Part shown: positions 4,208-42,376 of the stretch, piece by piece
Position numbering within the stretch: the stretch's first letter is position 1
Layout: every line of letters starts with the position of its first letter
Assembly: GCF_014647455.2 (NCBI RefSeq)
Contig: NZ_BMPF01000003.1
Location: 1 to 64,000, forward strand
Direction: 5' to 3'
Source: Halarchaeum grantii
GTDB lineage: Archaea; Halobacteriota; Halobacteria; Halobacteriales; Halobacteriaceae
DNA length: 64,000 bases
Position numbers and translations under genes: made by a program
The notes under the pieces: generated by a model
Databases searched by the model: none
What the model was told of the DNA's origin: nothing
Seen by the model: only the letters and a program-made list of their open reading frames with translations

Positions 4208-4336
4208 CGCTGTTCCTCCTGACTGTTTGTCGGCGTCCCCAGAACGCTCCGCGTTCTGGTGTGCGCACGAGAACGCTGTTTCTCGTGCACGCCGGGAGGC
4301 GTGCAGCGCGCGACAGCGTGCGCGGCGTGACTCACT

Positions 4337-4627
4337 ATGCCTGGTCCCGATCCTCACGACGACACGAGTAGCGACCACGAACAGTTCGAGAAGGAACAGC
4401 TCGCACAGGACCGCGACGCCGCCAGCGTCGACACGGCGGACGTCGACGACGCGACGGCCCAACGTCTGGTTAATGACCTCGCCGACGCGGACGTCGTCAC
4501 TCCGGTTTCCGAGGACCACGTTCTGGTTCACGAGCCGAGCGGTGCCGCATTCGACTCTTCGACGCAGCTGGCCGTCTTCCACAGTGGTTGGGCGGCCGGC
4601 CGCGACGCCGAGGTGGAGGGCGAATGA
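4337..4627 (+). CDS. Small acidic hypothetical protein
   Basis: A 96-residue, very acidic protein (MPGPDPHDDTSSDHEQFE at the start). The C-terminal part, about residues 45-90, looks folded (LVNDLADADVVTPVSEDHVLVHEPSG). Its stop overlaps the ATG of the zinc-finger gene by 4 nt (ATGA at 4624-4627), so the two are translationally coupled. I do not recognise the family. Confidence 0.6.
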   Translation: MPGPDPHDDTSSDHEQFEKEQLAQDRDAASVDTADVDDATAQRLVNDLADADVVTPVSEDHVLVHEPSGAAFDSSTQLAVFHSGWAAGRDAEVEGE

Positions 4628-4962
4628 TGCAGCAAACGCTCGTCGGCTGTGCGTTCTGCGACGCCCCGCCCGGCACCGAGACTGGTGAGGCCCACACCTG
4701 GGGACAGGACGAGCGGGTCACCCACCCGATCTGTGTCGACTGTGCGATTCAGACGGAGCCGGATCCCGACGAGCACGATCACGTCGCCTGTGACGGCTGT
4801 GGGCTGGTGGTCGACACGCTCGCTGCCCTCACGCGGTTCCGGGTGGAACTCGGGCATCTGGAAGGCCCGTTGCAGTTGTGCGCCCGCTGTAGTCCGGGCG
4901 GGCTCGCGACGTACTGGACGCGTGACCTCAAGGAGCACCTCGTCGCGAGGCCGGCGGAGTGA
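4624..4962 (+). CDS. Zinc-finger protein with four CxxC knuckles
   Basis: The 112-residue protein contains four Cys pairs (CAFC, CVDC, CDGC, CARC), enough for two zinc sites. The ATG at 4624 overlaps the stop of the preceding gene. Such small multi-knuckle proteins are frequent in haloarchaeal plasmids and viruses; a nucleic-acid or protein-binding role is inferred, not shown. It precedes the winged-helix/PIN pair in the same direction. Confidence 0.65.
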   Translation: MMQQTLVGCAFCDAPPGTETGEAHTWGQDERVTHPICVDCAIQTEPDPDEHDHVACDGCGLVVDTLAALTRFRVELGHLEGPLQLCARCSPGGLATYWTRDLKEHLVARPAE

Positions 4963-5012
4963 CCCAAACACTCTTTACTGTTTTCGCTGTAATCTGTAAT
5001 CAAGAACGAACC

Positions 5013-5615
5013 ATGTCACGCACTTCAAACCGGGCCGACGGCGACATTGTTCGCGACTTCCTCTCGGTCGCGGCCCTCCTCGAGGAGCCACAACTGGCTC
5101 AGCTGTACGCGTACCTCGCTCGGGAGAGCGAGGCGACGGTCCAGGACGCGATGGACGACCTCGAACTTGCCCAGGGGACCGCCTACAGCTACGTCAACCG
5201 GCTCGTCGACGCCGGTGTCGTCGACGTCACCGACGACGGGCAGCCCCGTCGGTACGCCGCCCGCCCGATCGACCTGACCGTGACGACGGCTGCTGGTGAC
5301 CGCGAGTACACGATCACGCCGGCGCTCATCGACGCCGTCGGCCGTCGCGAGACGAATGCGGACATCGATACCTACATCGACCGCCACGGCGTCGCCGGGC
5401 TCGCAACGGCGCTCACCTACGCCGTCGCTCGGGAGCGCGGCGAAGTGACCCACCGGCTGATGGCCGAGGACCTGGACATCTCGCCGCTGGCCGCGGAGAT
5501 GATTCTGCAGGCGCTCCACCCCGTCGTCCACGAGCACTACGACATCGAGGAGGGAGGGGCATCTCTAGATGAGGTGAACGTCGGCGACGGCGACGACGAC
5601 ACTAGCGACGCGTGA
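5013..5615 (+). CDS. Winged-helix regulator paired with PIN protein
   Basis: The 200-residue protein has an N-terminal helix-turn-helix (about residues 20-75: LYAYLARESEATVQDAMDD, then AQGTAYSYVNRLVDAGVV and a basic wing DDGQPRRYAA). The rest is a helical domain ending in an acidic tail. ATG 5013 lies behind a T-rich stretch containing the tandem CTGTAATCTGTAATC (4988-5002), a plausible self-operator. The stop overlaps the GTG of the PIN gene by 4 nt, so it is the likely antitoxin or repressor of that gene. Confidence 0.72.
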   Translation: MSRTSNRADGDIVRDFLSVAALLEEPQLAQLYAYLARESEATVQDAMDDLELAQGTAYSYVNRLVDAGVVDVTDDGQPRRYAARPIDLTVTTAAGDREYTITPALIDAVGRRETNADIDTYIDRHGVAGLATALTYAVARERGEVTHRLMAEDLDISPLAAEMILQALHPVVHEHYDIEEGGASLDEVNVGDGDDDTSDA

Positions 5616-6121
5616 GCCGGCTCCACATCGCCGACACCGGCCTGTTCGTCGCGATGGGACAGCCGTCGAACAGTCGGTACCAGGCCGTTCGGCGGTTCGC
5701 CCGCCGGAACGGCATCACCTTCGTCCTCCCTGAACGAGTGTACGAGGAGCTGACCGTCGACAATCCGGACGTCGAGGACGTGCCAGTTGACACCGCGATC
5801 GACGAGGGCTGGGCGACGGTTGCGGCGCCGCTCGAGTTCTCCGAGCCTATCGTCTCTCGGGTGATGGACGGGCTCCAGCGGTACATCGCGAACGCCGACG
5901 ACCGGCCCGCCGACGAAGTAGAGCGTGCCGACGCCGCCCTCGCTGCGCTGGCTGCCCAGCATCTCAGTGCGGGGACCGCGACCGAGGTCTACATCTACAC
6001 GACGGATATCGCGGCCGGCGAGGGGGCCGAGACCGTGCTCGCGAGCGAGGGCTATGGGGATTCAGTGACATTCGTCAACGGCTTCCGGGTCATCGAGGAC
6101 CTGGTCGCCGGCGACAGCTGA
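5612..6121 (+). CDS. PIN-like domain protein, putative RNase toxin
   Basis: The 169-residue product starts at GTG 5612 inside the stop of the upstream regulator. It begins with a beta strand and an early aspartate (LHIADTGLFVAMG), keeps acidic residues in the middle (VERADAALAALA) and ends with strands containing TTDIAAGEGA, the layout of PIN nucleases (acidic residues at strand ends). PIN toxins cleave RNA. It is divergent from classical VapC, so activity is inferred. With the preceding winged-helix gene it forms a toxin-antitoxin-like pair. Confidence 0.62.
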   Translation: MSRLHIADTGLFVAMGQPSNSRYQAVRRFARRNGITFVLPERVYEELTVDNPDVEDVPVDTAIDEGWATVAAPLEFSEPIVSRVMDGLQRYIANADDRPADEVERADAALAALAAQHLSAGTATEVYIYTTDIAAGEGAETVLASEGYGDSVTFVNGFRVIEDLVAGDS

Positions 6122-6530
6122 CTGATTGCTAGTCTGATTCGGTGGGAGAGGACATTTGAAAGCCCTCGGCCGCTCGACGTCCCGCGACCGCCGCTGCGCG
6201 CCTCGTGCCTGCGGTGCTTGCGGGGTCGGGGGACGACCGAGCCGCCCTCGCCCTTTCTGAGTCCGCCAACTGTTGATTGCCCATCGAGCGACGTGACCGG
6301 CTGGACAGGTGTGTCCGTGACGGCCCGCCCCGCTCGCCGCTGCCGCCCTCCGCGTCGCTCGCGACCGACCATTCCGGGCGTGCGGGCGCTCTCCGCACCG
6401 CCTGCGCCCGTTCCGGGCTAAAGTGGATGTGCCCTCGGCGCCAGCGCTTCTCCCGTTCGGGTCCTGCGGACCTCGGCTTCGCCGACCGCGACGGACGTGG
6501 TTGCGTCGCGGCGAACGGGGAATGCGCTGG

Positions 6531-6688
6531 GCGCTCGCTCCGGGCGGGTCGGCGCGCGGTGCTGGATGAGTACTCCGTCGAGGGCGCGCTCTCGCTCGCG
6601 CCCCAAGGGGCGCTCGCTCCGGGCGGGTCGGCGCGCGGTGCTGGATGAGTACTCCGTCGAGGGCGCGCTCTCGCTCGCGCCCCAAGGG
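6531..6688. repeat. Two tandem copies of a 79-bp unit
   Basis: Bases 6531-6609 and 6610-6688 are identical as read by eye, and the first bases of a third copy follow (from 6689) before the sequence diverges. Each unit includes GCGCTCGCTCC and a TGGATGAGTACTCC segment. The exactness implies a recent duplication. Confidence 0.85.
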
Positions 6689-6718
6689 GCGCTCGCGAAG
6701 GCGCGAGCGAGAGCGCGC
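6663..6718. repeat. Perfect 19-bp inverted repeat (hairpin)
   Basis: The arm GCGCGCTCTCGCTCGCGCC (6663-6681) is matched by its exact reverse complement at 6700-6718 across an 18-base spacer. The left arm also occurs once in the preceding tandem copy. It could stall or structure transcripts ahead of the OB-fold gene. Confidence 0.8.
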
Positions 6719-7698: not shown

Positions 7699-7817
7699 GA
7701 CGACCATCGCAGGCTCTTTTCTTTTTGTTTGCCGGACCAGACCCAGGCCCCACCGCCCCACCCTCCGCTCCGTGCTCGCTCCCACAGGTCGCTGCGCGCG
7801 CAGCCACAACCTTGACG

Positions 7818-7853
7818 GGTTTATTCCGTCTGTAAGAAGGTTTATTCCGTCTG
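7818..7853. promoter_or_regulatory. Direct-repeat operator candidate upstream of module 1
   Basis: The 15-mer GGTTTATTCCGTCTG occurs at 7818-7832 and again at 7839-7853, a spacing of 21 bases or two helical turns, 18 bases before ATG 7871. This is a likely binding site for the winged-helix protein encoded immediately downstream. Confidence 0.65.
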
Positions 7854-7870
7854 GGTGCGTGAGATCGTGT

Positions 7871-8446
7871 ATGAAAGAGCCGCGCGACGAGTTGAAAGCC
7901 GACTCGGTGGAGCGACAGGACGCTCCTGATTTCGACGCGCTCACCCCGCCCGAAGACGTGGTCCGCGGCGGACGAACGCGAGACGACTTCTTCGACGCGA
8001 TCCTGACGCTCGGGAGTCCGACGTCCGTCGAGGGGGTTGCGGAGCGCGCCGGGCATGGCGTGGATGCCGCGCGTGAATACTTAGAGTGGTTCGAGCGAAT
8101 GGGTGTCGTCACGCGGGTGACGGAGTCGCCGGCGACGTACGAGCGCAACGAGGCGTATCTCCAGTGGCGGCGCGTGCAGCGCCTCCAAACGGAGTACTCG
8201 CAGGACGAACTGCTCGAATTCCTCCAGGCTGCGACGGAGCGTGACGAGGCATACGCAAGCGAGTTCGACGTCGACGCACCCGAGGACGTCTCGATCGCGG
8301 CGTACGCACGCGAGCACGACGAACCCGTGGAAGACGTCTGGGAGGATGTCTCACGCTGGATGACGACGCGACGACGGATCACGCTCCTCGAACGAGCGCT
8401 CACCGGCGCGGACGACGGTCTCGCTGGCCAGCAGTCCCCGGCATGA
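7871..8446 (+). CDS. Winged-helix protein of two-gene module, copy 1 (DUF7342-like)
   Basis: The 191-residue protein has an N-terminal winged helix (about 40-90): FFDAILTLGSPTSVEGVAERAG, a recognition helix AREYLEWFERMG and a wing ending TYERNEAYLQWRRVQRL. The C-terminal half is helical. The same domain order and the R/Y-NEAY(L/F)xW(R/K)R signature are found in the proteins at 36689 and 41427. Its stop overlaps the next ATG (ATGA), so it is coupled to the RWDRHP-motif gene. It is probably the antitoxin or repressor. The DUF number is from memory. Confidence 0.75.
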   Translation: MKEPRDELKADSVERQDAPDFDALTPPEDVVRGGRTRDDFFDAILTLGSPTSVEGVAERAGHGVDAAREYLEWFERMGVVTRVTESPATYERNEAYLQWRRVQRLQTEYSQDELLEFLQAATERDEAYASEFDVDAPEDVSIAAYAREHDEPVEDVWEDVSRWMTTRRRITLLERALTGADDGLAGQQSPA

Positions 8447-8889
8447 GCAGCGGTGACGAGACGCCCGACCTCGACATGAGTGATGGCGCGCCAGTCGATT
8501 TCGAACGGCTCTCGCTCATCGCTACGCGTCTCGGCAACGATGCCCGCTTCGTTCGGATCGACGAGTCGCCGCCGACTGCACCAGACCGACTCGTCTGTGT
8601 GTTCGACCCTGCGCTCTATCCGGTGAGTGTCGAGGAAGCACGCCTCGACATCGCCTGGTTCCAGAACGAGACGTTCTCTATTCACTACCACGAGAGCCAT
8701 GCCGAGAGCGAGTTCGACCATCGCTGGGATCGGCATCCCTCGACACACAACGTGCTCGATCACATTCATCCAGGACCGGACGCGCCGACGCCGGGAGAGG
8801 ATGCTCACCATCCCGATGACTGGCGGGATGTGCTCACAACCGTGCTGAACGAAATCGAGGACCGCCAGCGCGGCTTCTGGACCGACTAG
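8443..8889 (+). CDS. RWDRHP-motif protein of two-gene module, copy 1
   Basis: The 148-residue protein carries a central beta-rich part (VSVEEARLDIAWFQNETFSIHYHES) followed by HRWDRHPSTHNVLDHIHPGP. The motif RWDRHPx(n)HxHxxP is shared with the second genes of the modules at 37256 and 41951. The Asp/His clustering after a short strand resembles the DUF6516/TumE toxin layout, but this is only a resemblance. Overlap of 4 nt with the winged-helix gene and strict pairing in three copies suggest a toxin-antitoxin-like role. Confidence 0.62.
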   Translation: MSSGDETPDLDMSDGAPVDFERLSLIATRLGNDARFVRIDESPPTAPDRLVCVFDPALYPVSVEEARLDIAWFQNETFSIHYHESHAESEFDHRWDRHPSTHNVLDHIHPGPDAPTPGEDAHHPDDWRDVLTTVLNEIEDRQRGFWTD

Positions 8890-8934
8890 CCACCGTCGCA
8901 CTCTCAGTTCACAGCGTCCACCATCGGGCCGTCT

Positions 8935-36633: not shown

Positions 36634-36669
36634 AGATATATCTCGTCTATACACAAGATATATCGTCTA
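36634..36669. promoter_or_regulatory. Direct-repeat operator candidate upstream of module 2
   Basis: AGATATATCTCGTCT (36634-36648) and AGATATATCGTCT (36656-36668) are direct repeats 22 bases apart, 20 bases before ATG 36689. The arrangement copies that of module 1 (15-mers 21 bases apart) with a different sequence. Confidence 0.6.
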
Positions 36670-36688
36670 GTAGCGACGATAGCTGTAT

Positions 36689-37243
36689 ATGAGCGAGGAG
36701 TCCCCGGGGGCCGCTCCGTCGTCCGGAGTTGATGGTGAGGCACGGAGTCGCTGGACCGACGAGCGGACCACCTTCCAACGTGTCTACGATATCGTCACGA
36801 CACTCTCTACCTACGAGACCGTGAGCGAGATTGCGGAGCAGGCGTCGTGTTCGACGGACGGTGCCCGTGATGCACTCTCGCAGCTCGACGAGATGGGGAT
36901 CGTCGAGACACGCGGGAGCCGCCCTGTCGAGTATCGCCGCAACGAGGCGTACTTTCGCTGGAAGCGTATCGAGGATCTCGCTCGAGACTACACCCCGAGC
37001 GAACTCCGCGCCCAAATCGACGACCTCATCCAGGAAGACGACACGCTCCAAGAGCGGTTCGACGCGCCGAGTCCTGACGCCGTCTCTCCCCACGAGTTCG
37101 AGGACGTCGACCACGAGACGATCCACGACCGCTGGGACGCGCTGAGTCGGTGGCGGAGTATCCGCCACGACATCGAGGTCCTCCAGCAGGCCGCCCACCG
37201 CGCTGAACAACGCCGAGACACCAGCGACACCGCCTCTCCCTGA
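36689..37243 (+). CDS. Winged-helix protein of two-gene module, copy 2 (DUF7342-like)
   Basis: The 184-residue protein has a winged helix at about 25-85 (FQRVYDIVTTLSTYETVSEI, CSTDGARDALSQLDEMGIVE, wing VEYRRNEAYFRWKRIEDLAR) and a helical C-terminal domain. The RRNEAYFxWKR signature equals ERNEAYLQWRR at 7871. The RWDRHP-motif gene follows after 12 bases. Likely antitoxin and autorepressor acting at the direct repeats just upstream. Confidence 0.75.
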   Translation: MSEESPGAAPSSGVDGEARSRWTDERTTFQRVYDIVTTLSTYETVSEIAEQASCSTDGARDALSQLDEMGIVETRGSRPVEYRRNEAYFRWKRIEDLARDYTPSELRAQIDDLIQEDDTLQERFDAPSPDAVSPHEFEDVDHETIHDRWDALSRWRSIRHDIEVLQQAAHRAEQRRDTSDTASP

Positions 37244-37255
37244 CCCCCGATCTCG

Positions 37256-37696
37256 ATGCCGCCAACGCCAGACGGGGATGATCAGACTCCGCAGGGCCGT
37301 CTCGACGCGACGACGCTTCGAACACTCGGTCGCCGCGCAGTGACACATCCTCTCGTTGCGGCGTGGTCCTTCGAACCGACCGCCATCTCACCTCGATTTC
37401 TCGAGATTGAACTCGACGCCGACGCCTACCCTGTGGACGTCGACGCTGTCCGGCTCGAACTCCATTGGTTTACGACTGACGACTACTACGTCCACTACAT
37501 CGAGACGCGCGATACCGAGTACTACCAGTGTCGGTGGGACCGCCATCCGAAGACGGACGCGCCCCGAAGCCATTTCCACCTGCCGCCGAACGCTGGGACC
37601 GCTATCGAATCTCCACTCGGGACACACGCACTCGAGGTTCTCTTCACGATCCTCGATTGGGTGAGCGAGCGTGTCTCCGAACTCCACGAGAGCTGA
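37256..37696 (+). CDS. RWDRHP-motif protein of two-gene module, copy 2
   Basis: The 146-residue protein has strands DVDAVRLELHWFTTDDYYVH, then CRWDRHPKTDAPRSHFHLPP and a C-terminal helix (HALEVLFTILDWVSERVSEL). It shares layout and motif with the proteins at 8443 and 41951. As with those, an Asp-Arg-His-Pro box and a HxH box sit in the middle. Function unknown; candidate toxin. Confidence 0.65.
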   Translation: MPPTPDGDDQTPQGRLDATTLRTLGRRAVTHPLVAAWSFEPTAISPRFLEIELDADAYPVDVDAVRLELHWFTTDDYYVHYIETRDTEYYQCRWDRHPKTDAPRSHFHLPPNAGTAIESPLGTHALEVLFTILDWVSERVSELHES

Positions 37697-38157: not shown

Positions 38158-38356
38158 ATGAGCACGTCCATCCGGGTGTCGGACGACACGAAACGGAAGC
38201 TGGAGAGCCTGAAGCGGGACGATGAGACGTTTGACGAACTTCTCGAACGCCTCGTGGAGAGCGAGAAGCCCCATCGACATTGGGGCGTGGAGCGAGGAGA
38301 AGGCTGACCGCGCGCGGGCGTCGGTGAAGCGCTCTCGGGAGAGCTTCGAGCGGTGA
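38158..38356 (+). pseudogene. vapB: VapB-like antitoxin with C-terminal frameshift
   Basis: ATG 38158 encodes MSTSIRVSDDTKRKLESLKR and DDETFDELLERLVESEKP, a ribbon-helix-helix antitoxin N-terminus. A run of four C (38269-38272) shifts the frame: as read, it ends early at TGA 38305-38307 (49 residues). With three C it would continue IDIGAWSEEKADRARASVKR and end at TGA 38354-38356, overlapping the vapC GTG by 4 nt. The lost tail is the part that usually wraps the toxin. Confidence 0.72.
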
Positions 38357-38751
38357 CGTTCCTCGATTCCTCGGTCATCATCGACATGCTCGAGGGCGTG
38401 CCCGATGTCGTTGAGTACGTCGAGAGCCGGGGGCAGCCCTACCTCACATCCGCCATCTGCGTCTTCGAGGTTGTGAACGGAGAGGTCGGCGCCGGAACCA
38501 CCGACGTTGTCGCGGTCCGGCAGGACTTCGGTGGCGTTCGCTCCCTCGACCTCACCGAACAAATCGCCTTGGAGGCGGGGCGGATGCAAGACCAGCTGAT
38601 GGACAACGGCGAACGGGTGGCCGCGCGCGATCTCCTCATCGCGGCCACCGCGCGGTCTACCGGTGACGAACTCATCGTCTCGGATGGCGATTTCGAGACG
38701 CAGCTTCTCACGGACCTGCTGGACGTCACAAACCTCCGTGAGGACGACTGA
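38353..38751 (+). CDS. vapC: VapC-family PIN-domain toxin
   Basis: The 132-residue protein starts at GTG 38353. PIN motifs are present: D5 (FLDSSVIIDMLEG), the glutamate in CVFEVVNGE, D93 region (AARDLLIAATA) and the final DELIVSDGDFE. VapC toxins cleave tRNA or rRNA. It sits directly behind the VapB gene, whose reading frame is shifted upstream, so toxin control may be altered. Confidence 0.85.
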   Translation: MTFLDSSVIIDMLEGVPDVVEYVESRGQPYLTSAICVFEVVNGEVGAGTTDVVAVRQDFGGVRSLDLTEQIALEAGRMQDQLMDNGERVAARDLLIAATARSTGDELIVSDGDFETQLLTDLLDVTNLREDD

Positions 38752-39117: not shown

Positions 39118-39690
39118 GACTACTTCCGATCGATGCTCTAGCGCATTCAGGACCATTCCTCAGACCTGCTCGGATTTCCCACTCGCCACGACGAGAACGA
39201 GGGGCTGAGTGGTGGGCAACAGTAGAGTACGCACTCGACGGCGATGTGGACCTCGTTCTGGAGACGCGTCGAGCGATCGAGGGCGCGGACGCCCGCTAAC
39301 CATTACAGGAAAAGCATACGAAACGTACTGTCCGTCCCTCGCGTACTGGTCGTGTTCTCCGTCGAGTCGTCGCGGACGGCGACTCGCCCCTGCCCGGCGT
39401 CCGCGTCACCGCACGGGAGTGCGATGTGGTGCTCCCCGGCGAACGGGTGCGGCTGGTCACTGACGGCACGGCGTCTCCCCGGGCTGATCGACGGCGACGA
39501 CGATGCGTCGTTCCCGCTGGCGAGCTCGGAGCACGCGGCGGCGCCGCTATCGAGATATCGTGTTCGCCACGGCCGCCTGCTCTGCGACGTCGAGCACGAG
39601 GCGTTCGGTGTTCGGGGTCGTGTCGTCGCTCGTCGCCCCCACATCCGGAACGGGCGACTCGTGAGTGCGGCTGAACAAGGTTCACATTGC
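39118..39690 (+). repeat. Dispersed sequence family A, longest copy
   Basis: This stretch is the most complete copy. It carries CTCGACGGCGATGTGGAC, the CATACGAAACGTACTGTCC motif (39315-39333), SPLPGVRVTARECDVVLP and GERVRLVTDGTA in one frame, then LIDGDDDASFPLASSEHAAA and LSRYRVRHGRLLCDVEHEAF in another. It appears to be a decayed gene or element head that has spread through the island. Family unknown. Confidence 0.6.
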
Positions 39691-39718
39691 TTGCGTACCC
39701 ATACACAAACACAAGACT

Positions 39719-40018
39719 CTGCCGTCGAAGAATATCGGCCTCCGCGAGGACGTCTACGACCGCCTCAAGGCGCACAAGCGCGGCGACGAGAGTTTCAGCG
39801 AGACGCTGGAGCGCCTCCTCGATGACGTCGACGGCGATTGGCGAACCCATATTGGCTTCCTCAGTGGGGCGGACGCCGAGGAACTCGAAGCCGAGGTCGA
39901 ACGTGGCCTCGATGAACTCGACGACTCGATGGCTGGTCTTGGCGACCGAATCGACACCGCCTTCGCCGACGGCGAGGAGGACACGTCACTGACCCACATA
40001 GATACTCCATATGCATAA
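39719..40018 (+). CDS. Orphan VapB-like antitoxin, CTG start inferred
   Basis: The frame encodes SKNIGLREDVYDRLKAHKRG, DESFSETLERLLDDVDGDWR and an acidic helical tail, the standard haloarchaeal VapB antitoxin. Relatives begin just before 'NIGLRED'; here the codon in that place is CTG (39719-39721), and GTG 39665 would add 18 odd residues. The promoter-like ACCCATACACAAAC precedes it. No VapC follows, so it may be a leftover or a trans-acting antitoxin. Confidence 0.6.
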   Translation: MPSKNIGLREDVYDRLKAHKRGDESFSETLERLLDDVDGDWRTHIGFLSGADAEELEAEVERGLDELDDSMAGLGDRIDTAFADGEEDTSLTHIDTPYA

Positions 40019-40097
40019 TACTCCGATCTACTGCCGACTTCTATGTGTTTGTAGTCCGTAGATTCATAATTCCTCGGTGCGTCCTTTCGATACGTGC

Positions 40098-41276
40098 ATG
40101 CAGGAAACCGAACTGGAAGACTCAGCTCCGGGCACACTCGTCTCCTACGGGAGGCAGTCCTACTACAAGCCCGACCCACTTCCTCCGTCTCGATCACTCG
40201 ACCTCGACGCATCCTTCTACGAGACGCTCGCTGACGCGACGTTCTGGTTGGGGCAGCTGAGTGGCATCAGTCGCGAACTCGACTTCCCACCGGTGCTCTA
40301 TACGTCACTCTTGCGCAAGGAAGCGATGGAGTCCGCGGAGATCGAGGGCGCAGACGTCGACTATAACGCACTGTACGGTCTCGAAACGCGAACACTCGAC
40401 GACGCGACCGGTGAATCCACAGCGGACGAGCGGGCACTTGCGGACACGAAGGATACCCAAGAAGTGTTGAACTACGAAGCAGCGATACTCGACGGGATCG
40501 ACGCCCTCGACGACGACGCCGAGATTACCGTTGAATTGCTCCATCAACTCCACGAGACTCTCTTGACGGGCGTCCCCGACGCTCGCGTCGACACCGACAC
40601 CATCGGTGCATACAAGACGATTCCGAATCATCTGGGTGACTTCCTCCCACCGGTACCGGGTGCTGTTGGTGGATTGATGGACGCGCTCATCACCTACTAC
40701 CGGACGGGCGGTCGCTACCACCCGCTCGTGGATATCGGGCTCTTTCACTATCAGTTCGAGACGATCCATCCCTATGGCGATGGGAACGGTCGCCTCGGTC
40801 GCCTCCTCATCACGCTCCAACTCTACGATCACGGGTATCTAGAGCGCCCGAATCTCTACCTGAGTGAGTACTTCAATCGGAATAAGGCGATGTACGTCGA
40901 TCGGATGAATGCCGTTCGGACGCGTGGGGACTGGGAGGCATGGCTCTCCTTCTTCGTGCGTGGCATCGCCCGACAAGCACACGAATCGGTCAAGCGAACA
41001 CTCGCTCTCGACGACCTCCGCCGAACATACGAGGAAGAGTATGGGGGTGTCGCATACACGAAGCACCGACTCGCCTGCACACTCTTCGAGCAGCCGTACC
41101 TCACGACGAAGACCGTCATGCAACGCTTCGACGTCGAGCAATCCACCGCCTATCGGGCGATCACCGCGCTCGAAGATGCCGGCGTCCTCGAGGAAGTTCC
41201 CGGGGGCGGCCGCCGACAGGAGTATCGCGCTCGCGAGATCTTCGACATCCTCGAACAACCACCGCAAACGTACTAG
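40098..41276 (+). CDS. Fic-family protein with winged-helix C-terminus
   Basis: The 392-residue protein has a Fic N-terminal domain with inhibitory motif SAEIEG (79-84, the (S/T)xxxE(G/N) helix of self-inhibited Fic enzymes), the active loop HPYGDGNGRLGR (224-235) and a C-terminal winged helix (about 310-392). It would AMPylate a protein target, with autoinhibition built in. A near-identical copy of the last 270 bp is fused to another gene at 48757-49027. ATG 40098 is preferred to GTG 40077. Confidence 0.88.
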   Translation: MQETELEDSAPGTLVSYGRQSYYKPDPLPPSRSLDLDASFYETLADATFWLGQLSGISRELDFPPVLYTSLLRKEAMESAEIEGADVDYNALYGLETRTLDDATGESTADERALADTKDTQEVLNYEAAILDGIDALDDDAEITVELLHQLHETLLTGVPDARVDTDTIGAYKTIPNHLGDFLPPVPGAVGGLMDALITYYRTGGRYHPLVDIGLFHYQFETIHPYGDGNGRLGRLLITLQLYDHGYLERPNLYLSEYFNRNKAMYVDRMNAVRTRGDWEAWLSFFVRGIARQAHESVKRTLALDDLRRTYEEEYGGVAYTKHRLACTLFEQPYLTTKTVMQRFDVEQSTAYRAITALEDAGVLEEVPGGGRRQEYRAREIFDILEQPPQTY

Positions 41277-41361: not shown

Positions 41362-41388
41362 CCAGCAATTCACTCAGATATTTGCTGG
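41362..41388. promoter_or_regulatory. Inverted-repeat operator candidate upstream of module 3
   Basis: CCAGCAA (41362-41368) and TTGCTGG (41382-41388) are exact inverted repeats, 39 bases before ATG 41427. It replaces the direct repeats seen upstream of modules 1 and 2. Confidence 0.5.
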
Positions 41389-41426
41389 AGAGAACCTATA
41401 TCTGTGTGCAGTTCGTAGCGTCGCGT

Positions 41427-41951
41427 ATGAGCGAGTTCGATCCGGCACCGGACACCGCGAGTACTGAGACGTCGTGGCCGGAGGGGATGGATACGTTCGA
41501 CCGCGTGTACGACGTCGTCCTCGGACTCTCGGAGTTGACGGACTATCACGCGATCGCGGACACCGCGTCGTGTTCGGTGAACGCGGCGAAGAAGCACCTC
41601 GACCGGCTCGCCGAGATGGGGGTCGCTCGCGCGGATACGGAGGCTCGGCCGGCGCGCTACGCGCGCGACGAGGGCTATCTCGAGTTTCGGGAGGCGAGTC
41701 GGATCGCCGCTGACCTCTCGGTCGAGGAGATCGTCGAACGCGTTGAGCGTCTGGAGGCCGAGCGTAACTCGTACGAGGACCGATTCGGGACGACGGACCC
41801 ATCGAGTGTCGACGTCTTCGCGGGCGACCACGAGACGGCCCACAAACGGATGACCGCGGTGAGCGACTGGCGGGCGACGATCCGCGATATCCGCCTCCAC
41901 GAGCTCGCGCGACAGCTTGCCCAACACGGCGGCCACCTCGTCCACGCCTAA
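41427..41951 (+). CDS. Winged-helix protein of two-gene module, copy 3 (DUF7342-like)
   Basis: The 174-residue protein (MSEFDPAPDTASTETSWPEG) has the winged helix FDRVYDVVLGLSELTDYHAI, CSVNAAKKHLDRLAEMGVAR and the wing ARPARYARDEGYLEFREASR, then a helical C-terminal domain. It aligns in layout with 7871 and 36689. Its stop shares one base with the ATG of the RWDRHP-motif gene (TAATG). Confidence 0.74.
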   Translation: MSEFDPAPDTASTETSWPEGMDTFDRVYDVVLGLSELTDYHAIADTASCSVNAAKKHLDRLAEMGVARADTEARPARYARDEGYLEFREASRIAADLSVEEIVERVERLEAERNSYEDRFGTTDPSSVDVFAGDHETAHKRMTAVSDWRATIRDIRLHELARQLAQHGGHLVHA

Positions 41952-42376
41952 TGGGCGATCGCGAGTCGACGGGGCCACCCGACCGACAGACACTCCGCCT
42001 CCTCGAACGCCACCTCTCGAGAGATGCCCGCATCGAGACGACGAGGTTCGACCCGGACACGTACGAACCCCGCCTCCTGCGCGCGCACTTCGATGCTGCA
42101 CGGTGGCCGACAGGTGTCGAGGTCGTTCGACTTGACGTTCGGTGGTTCGAGACGCGGGATTTCTCGTTCCACTACCTCGAATCGGGCGCGAACGAGTGGG
42201 AGTGTCGCTGGGATCGCCATCCGAACGACCACAATACGCGTGTCCATTTTCACCCGCCACCCGGTGTCGGGGATGCTGTCGACCTCGCGCTGTCGTCCCT
42301 GCATCCGCTCGACGTGCTCTCGACCGTCCGCACCGCAATCACGCAACGCCTCGACGACCATTGGACGACCGACTGA
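41951..42376 (+). CDS. RWDRHP-motif protein of two-gene module, copy 3
   Basis: The 141-residue protein has strands VEVVRLDVRWFETRDFSFHY, then WECRWDRHPNDHNTRVHFHP and a C-terminal helix. The two conserved boxes, RWDRHP and HFH, match the other two copies. Function unknown; candidate toxin. A decayed DUF5615-like gene starts at its stop codon. Confidence 0.66.
   Translation: MGDRESTGPPDRQTLRLLERHLSRDARIETTRFDPDTYEPRLLRAHFDAARWPTGVEVVRLDVRWFETRDFSFHYLESGANEWECRWDRHPNDHNTRVHFHPPPGVGDAVDLALSSLHPLDVLSTVRTAITQRLDDHWTTD

What the first reader, a model, noticed from the sequence alone, without database searches (positions are those of the whole stretch)
7818..8889. Two-gene module copy 1: winged helix plus RWDRHP/HxH protein, with direct-repeat operator
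The same module occurs at 36.6-37.7 kb and 41.4-42.4 kb. The second protein always has RWDRHP followed by HxHxxP and has no clear known family; the first always has a winged helix with a (R/D)NE(A/G)Y(L/F)xxxR wing end. Copies 1 and 2 have 13-15 bp direct repeats spaced 21-22 bp just before the start. Together this suggests an autoregulated toxin-antitoxin-like or defence pair that has spread.
Basis: partly seen in the sequence, partly recalled or inferred. Interest (0 to 1): 0.72.

Follow-up and report, generated by a model that had tools for sequence, protein, structure and literature searches.

The report
Haloarchaeal TumE-like toxin–antitoxin candidate cassettes
Three diverged copies of a two-gene cassette, a DNA-binding protein (DUF7342) followed by a protein distantly related to the growth-stopping toxin TumE, sit in this salt-loving archaeon; the same cassette, with its own paired operator, occurs in most haloarchaea and is probably an unrecognised toxin–antitoxin family.

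Summary
Window 7818-8889 is a compact cassette: tandem operator, gene A (7871-8446), gene B (8443-8889). Diverged copies lie at 36635-37696 and about 41371-42376. A is Pfam DUF7342, a winged helix. B has no Pfam family above cut-off, but has a subthreshold TumE match in 7 of 27 homologues, keeps six of TumE's seven near-invariant residues, and models as two helices on a six- to seven-stranded sheet, as described for TumE. B occurs in 246 of 292 haloarchaeal genomes (73 of 77 genera) and in none of 204 non-haloarchaeal genomes of the phylum. A lies directly upstream of B in 76 of 80 best loci, and A and B diverge in step (Mantel r 0.96). The operator recurs across the family: one element at about -48 and a second on the TATA box, 19-21 bp apart, with different sequences in different subfamilies. 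Best reading: a TumE-like type II toxin-antitoxin module that A represses and in which B is the toxin. Repression is well supported by comparison only. Toxicity and A-B binding are inferred; a fused A-B fold gave no confident docking. The copies are old paralogues (26-38% identical), not recent duplicates.

The parts
7815..7832 (+). copy 1, upstream operator element: ACGGGTTTATTCCGTCTG, partly palindromic (ACGG...TCCGT)
   Evidence: direct repeat D1; family motif ACGGAATANTCCGT at about -48
7839..7853 (+). copy 1, downstream operator element GGTTTATTCCGTCTG; contains the TATA-like TTTATT at -30 to -25 from the ATG
   Evidence: identical to the first repeat at spacing 21; family position
7871..8446 (+). 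copy 1 gene A, DUF7342 winged helix, putative antitoxin and autorepressor
   Evidence: PF24033 E = 4e-30, 105 bits against a cut-off of 31.6
8443..8889 (+). copy 1 gene B, RWDRHP/HxH TumE-like protein, putative toxin; overlaps A by ATGA
   Evidence: fold model pLDDT 88, pTM 0.83; family alignment A4
36635..36669 (+). copy 2 operator: GATATATCTCGTCTA and AGATATATCGTCTA, spacing 20, second element on the TATA box
   Evidence: similarity to L017 (same genus) starts at 36635
36689..37243 (+). copy 2 gene A, DUF7342
   Evidence: PF24033 E = 2e-29; winged helix and long helices in the model
37256..37696 (+). copy 2 gene B, TumE-like
   Evidence: seven strands and two helices in the model
41371..41408 (+). 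copy 3 operator region: CACTCAGATATTTG and CTATATCTGTGTG, inverted repeat 91%, second arm on the TATA box
   Evidence: subfamily motif TCACATATWTTTGA + AAAGATATATTGA in relatives
41427..41951 (+). copy 3 gene A, DUF7342
   Evidence: PF24033 E = 1e-21
41951..42376 (+). copy 3 gene B, TumE-like; overlaps A by one base
   Evidence: PF20126 TumE E = 0.0015, 18.9 bits, cut-off 23.4, below threshold

Best explanation
The cassette is an autoregulated type II toxin-antitoxin module. A (DUF7342), probably as a dimer, binds two tandem operator elements two helical turns apart; the downstream element covers the TATA box of what is probably a leaderless A-B transcript, so A (alone or with B) blocks TBP/TFB and represses the operon. 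B is a distant TumE relative whose conserved Y, RWDxxP and HxH cluster is the likely active site; by analogy with TumE it stops translation, perhaps as an RNase, and is held inactive by A. Loss of the cassette or of A synthesis would free B, giving plasmid or island addiction and possibly an abortive response. Shown here: gene pairing, co-divergence, operator conservation and position, cassette boundaries, predicted folds, remote TumE similarity. Inferred: toxicity, A-B binding, RNA target, repression itself.
For: A is DUF7342, a winged helix, nearest solved folds MarR- and IclR-type. A lies directly upstream of B in 76 of 80 best loci and in 20 of 20 further loci; A and B distances correlate at r = 0.956, largest of 2000 permutations 0.302. 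The operator is conserved at about -48 and on the TATA box, spacing 19-21 bp, with different sequences in the three copies. Copy 1 homology runs from 7818-7822 to about 8890 in relatives from several genera. TumE: 7 of 27 members match PF20126, best E = 5e-4, one over nearly the whole model. HH score B-TumE 23.6 against a column-permuted null of mean 10.7, maximum 18.4. The related DUF7342 partner family B'' scores 52 against B and 29.7 against TumE, both above nulls. The B2 model has two helices and seven strands, as PMC10584680 describes for TumE. Six of seven TumE near-invariant residues are kept. B is on 138 plasmid records, in pNG200 beside ParA/ParB.
Against: No B member passes Pfam's TumE cut-off; HHalign probability B-TumE is only 21%. 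No significant PDB or viral fold match. TumE's near-invariant N (RWDN) is R in B. The fused A-B fold of copy 2 gave pTM 0.53, no confident docking, though almost without paired alignment rows. Haloarchaeal canonical TumE has a different partner in the opposite gene order. No toxicity data exist; no paper in the library mentions DUF7342.
Confidence: 0.62

Rival explanations
1. A represses the operon and B is a harmful or stress effector, but A is not a direct antitoxin: control is transcriptional only, and B acts as a signal-induced effector, for example on virus entry or salt stress.
For: Operator evidence is strong while A-B docking was not confident. Some loci carry A without an obvious B (C4 and the second C7 locus).
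Against: Strict pairing and r = 0.96 co-divergence, ATGA-type overlap of the genes and the tested TumE-TumA pairs (PMC10584680) favour a protein complex.
Confidence: 0.18
2. B is not toxic: it is a ligand-binding or co-repressor partner that tunes A, so the pair is a small regulatory unit.
For: B has no assigned enzymatic family; B is well conserved (about 60% across genera in the copy 1 subfamily), more than is usual for toxins.
Against: The best conserved residues form a polar RWDxxP/HxH cluster shared with a tested toxin; patchy cassette-like spread and plasmid carriage.
Confidence: 0.13
3. The pair is a dedicated anti-viral defence system.
For: Patchy islands rich in PIN, VapB and Fic genes surround copies 1-3.
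Against: No convincing PADLOC match, only weak hits of A's winged helix; neighbours are other TA-type genes rather than known defence systems; common on plasmids.
Confidence: 0.07

Closest known systems
TumE-TumA (DUF6516/PF20126), PMC10584680
   Same: Two-gene operon with the TumE-like gene downstream in most clusters; two helices on a seven-stranded antiparallel sheet; Y, RWDxxP and HxH conserved; partner predicted to bind DNA.
   Different: B is about 45 residues longer (extra N-terminal helix and strands), has RWDRHP in place of RWDNxP, scores under the Pfam cut-off, and its partner is DUF7342. Canonical TumE of haloarchaea is encoded first, followed by another HTH protein.
DUF7342 (PF24033) with the GWHxDxxHP (B'') partner family
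   Same: Same antitoxin-like family, same gene order; B'' aligns with B over 125 columns (HH probability 95%). In this genome on C7, C9 and, as a further variant, C5.
   Different: The RWD and HxH residues are replaced (GWH, HFQ), so B'' may have another activity or none.
Winged-helix gene with PIN-like toxin gene (DUF7437 pair at 4959-6121)
   Same: Neighbouring two-gene, winged-helix-first module in the same island.
   Different: Different toxin-like second gene; first gene has DUF7437.

Membership tests
TumE toxin (PF20126) | Score above Pfam gathering cut-off (23.4 bits) | tested here: not met
   Best 20.4 bits; 7 of 27 members match below the cut-off
TumE toxin (PF20126) | Two helices on a seven-stranded antiparallel sheet | tested here: met
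   B2: H207-217, seven strands, H314-334; B1: six strands of 3+ residues. Strand pairing not inspected
TumE toxin (PF20126) | Near-invariant Y, R, D, N, P, H, H | tested here: inconclusive
   Six of seven kept; N is R in B
TumE toxin (PF20126) | Profile similarity above chance | tested here: met
   23.6 against null maximum 18.4; HH probability only 21%
TumE toxin (PF20126) | Toxic alone, neutralised by partner, inhibits translation | not testable with these tools
   needs an expression test
Type II toxin-antitoxin | Two-gene operon, small DNA-binding partner | tested here: met
Type II toxin-antitoxin | Autoregulatory operator at the operon promoter | tested here: met
   sequence evidence only; no binding assay
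Type II toxin-antitoxin | Protein-protein neutralisation | tested here: inconclusive
   fused A-B fold pTM 0.53
DUF7342 (PF24033) | Above cut-off 31.6 bits | tested here: met
   105, 103 and 78 bits

The most novel reading that the evidence does not exclude
DUF7342 is the shared antitoxin of a large haloarchaeal toxin-antitoxin superfamily whose toxins are diverged TumE relatives with at least two different active sites (RWDRHP/HxH and GWHxDxxHP/HFQ). Matched pairs of operators, one on the TATA box, with subfamily-specific sequences let many modules coexist in one cell.
Probability: 0.45. Interest if true: 0.62.

Novelty: new variant of a known kind. Interest (0 to 1): 0.5.

Why it matters
If right, about four in five haloarchaeal genomes carry an unrecognised toxin-antitoxin family, now labelled as a domain of unknown function and hypothetical proteins. 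It would extend the TumE fold into a second large branch with its own antitoxin, and gives residues and operators that can be tested directly in Haloferax. It also bears on how archaeal plasmids are kept and how many related modules coexist without cross-talk.

Tried and rejected
Recent duplication of the three copies: rejected, 26-38% identity. Viral origin: none in IMG/VR or INPHARED. Solved-structure relatives of B: none by sequence or Foldseek; VIA-align Z up to 6.5 to unrelated folds is within the usual background. First HHalign runs with narrow TumE sets or untrimmed ORFs gave little signal; cleaner, wider alignments did better. A test for broken B genes beside intact A genes was dropped because the reported stops could not be told from stops at gene ends. 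The rows of that alignment were chosen by trying random subsets until both halves lay in register. A loose genome-wide operator pattern was uninformative.

Full report
WHAT IS THERE. The window comes from a haloarchaeon: the closest relatives of copy 1 are in Halarchaeum species. At 7818-8889 lies a compact unit of two operator elements, gene A (7871-8446) and gene B (8443-8889), the genes overlapping by ATGA. Two more units lie at 36635-37696 and about 41371-42376. A is Pfam DUF7342, at 105, 103 and 78 bits against a cut-off of 31.6. B has no family above cut-off in Pfam and no useful match in NCBIfam or PADLOC; copy 3 has a subthreshold match to TumE (E = 0.0015).

NOT A RECENT LOCAL SPREAD. 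The copies are 27-31% (A) and 26-38% (B) identical to one another, while copy 1 is 83-90% identical to units in other Halarchaeum genomes and about 60% to units in other families. They are old paralogues, or arrived separately. The genome holds eight DUF7342 genes above cut-off. Two of the others are followed by related but different partners, and one by a partner that looks truncated.

DISTRIBUTION. B is found in 246 of 292 haloarchaeal genomes and 73 of 77 genera. In a sample of the whole phylum it was in 36 of 43 haloarchaea and none of the other 204 genomes. It is on 138 plasmid records, for example in Haloarcula marismortui pNG200 beside ParA and ParB. None was found in the viral or phage collections.

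THE PAIR IS A UNIT. Of the 80 best B loci, 76 have A directly upstream. In one exception (L103) an ORF resembling TnpB by eye separates A and B; in two B is truncated; in one part of the upstream sequence is masked and no A is seen. All of 20 further loci have the pair. Distances of A and B correlate at r = 0.956 over 47 non-redundant loci, against at most 0.302 in 2000 permutations. For copy 1, blastn similarity to other genomes starts at 7818-7822, the operator, in several relatives (elsewhere at or inside A) and ends at 8880-8898, just after B, while the flanks differ.

OPERATOR. In 66 non-redundant promoters anchored on the A start codon, the base composition shows an element around -48 and another over the TATA box at about -28. 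In the copy 1 subfamily these read ACGGAATANTCCGT and AAGATTTATTCCGT. Same-locus matching peaks at a spacing of 20 bp (7.6 of 18 positions, against about 4.4 at most other spacings). It exceeds control spacings at p = 6e-11 and 7e-9, and matching to other loci's upstream DNA at p = 7e-10. The start codon was chosen with the help of an AT-rich stretch at -36 to -24 where several ATGs were possible, so the TATA position is partly built in; the spacing is not. A second set of 31 promoters, mostly of the copy 3 subfamily, shows a different motif (TCACATATWTTTGA and AAAGATATATTGA) with peaks at 19 and 21 bp. The sequences thus differ between subfamilies while the layout stays. The TATA-like element lies about 30 bp before the ATG, as expected for a leaderless haloarchaeal transcript (general knowledge). 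Binding by A itself was not tested.

WHAT B IS. AlphaFold2 with 27 sequences gave pLDDT 88 and pTM 0.83 for B1: helix, six strands, helix. In the copy 2 model B has two helices and seven strands, the architecture PMC10584680 describes for TumE. As in that paper for TumE, no confident PDB match exists. Seven of 27 B proteins match the TumE profile below cut-off, best E = 5e-4; one covers 8-76 of its 81 positions. Profile-profile alignment of B with 53 archaeal TumE sequences scored 23.6 and matched RWDxxP and HxH in register; 200 column-permuted nulls had mean 10.7 and maximum 18.4. The partner family of canonical DUF7342 (B'', GWHxDxxHP) scores 52 against B over 125 columns and 29.7 against TumE, both above nulls. 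TumE's near-invariant Y, R, D, P, H and H are kept in B; its N is R. I read B as a distant TumE relative. I do not file it as a member, because the family cut-off was tested and not met.

WHAT A IS. The copy 2 model shows a winged helix followed by three long helices; nearest solved folds are MarR- and IclR-type regulators. Folding A2 and B2 as one read-through chain gave well-folded parts but pTM 0.53, so no confident docking. Almost all rows were unpaired, so this is inconclusive.

MECHANISM. Most likely A dimers occupy the tandem sites, keep TBP and TFB off the TATA box, and bind B. When A falls, the operon is derepressed and B is freed to act, perhaps as an RNase on translation as proposed for TumE. 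Shown: pairing, boundaries, operator, predicted folds, remote homology. Inferred: repression, binding, toxicity, target.

CONTEXT. The three units lie among other toxin-antitoxin-type genes: a DUF7437 winged helix with a PIN-like gene (4959-6121), a PIN gene (38353-38751), a VapB-type antitoxin (39665-40018) and a Fic protein with a winged helix (40077-41276) (the PIN-like call for 5612-6121 is by eye).

Noticed in passing
4954-6178: The DUF7437 winged-helix gene and the following gene match G000 contig C5 (L009) at 89% DNA identity over 1.2 kb: a second cassette-like pair present twice in the genome.
   Followed up: partly
4290-5553; L132 3458-4718, L139 3447-4190, L153 3465-4718: In several other haloarchaea the DNA just after a B gene is 73-87% identical to window 4290-5553, which here lies about 2.3 kb upstream of copy 1: the same gene groups recur in a different arrangement.
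   Followed up: partly
6529-6696: Perfect tandem repeat, 79-bp unit, 2.1 copies, 100% identity, GC-rich, between the PIN-like gene and the OB-fold gene.
   Followed up: no
L128, L129, L130 (6.4 kb): An A-B unit with at least 6.4 kb of surrounding DNA is 99.98-100% identical in three genomes labelled Halobellus captivus, Haloferacaceae XH8 and Halorubrum CBA1125: very recent transfer, or closely related or mislabelled records.
   Followed up: no
L046-L075: Canonical TumE in these haloarchaeal loci is nearly always the first gene, overlapped by a different HTH protein gene, the reverse of the order reported for most TumE clusters.
   Followed up: partly
L231 (G038): Two A-B units in tandem within about 2 kb.
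   Followed up: no
G000:C9:46359-46802 (L002): A DUF7342 gene whose B'' partner seems to lose its frame after FHCGW: a probable degraded toxin-like gene with its partner kept.
   Followed up: no
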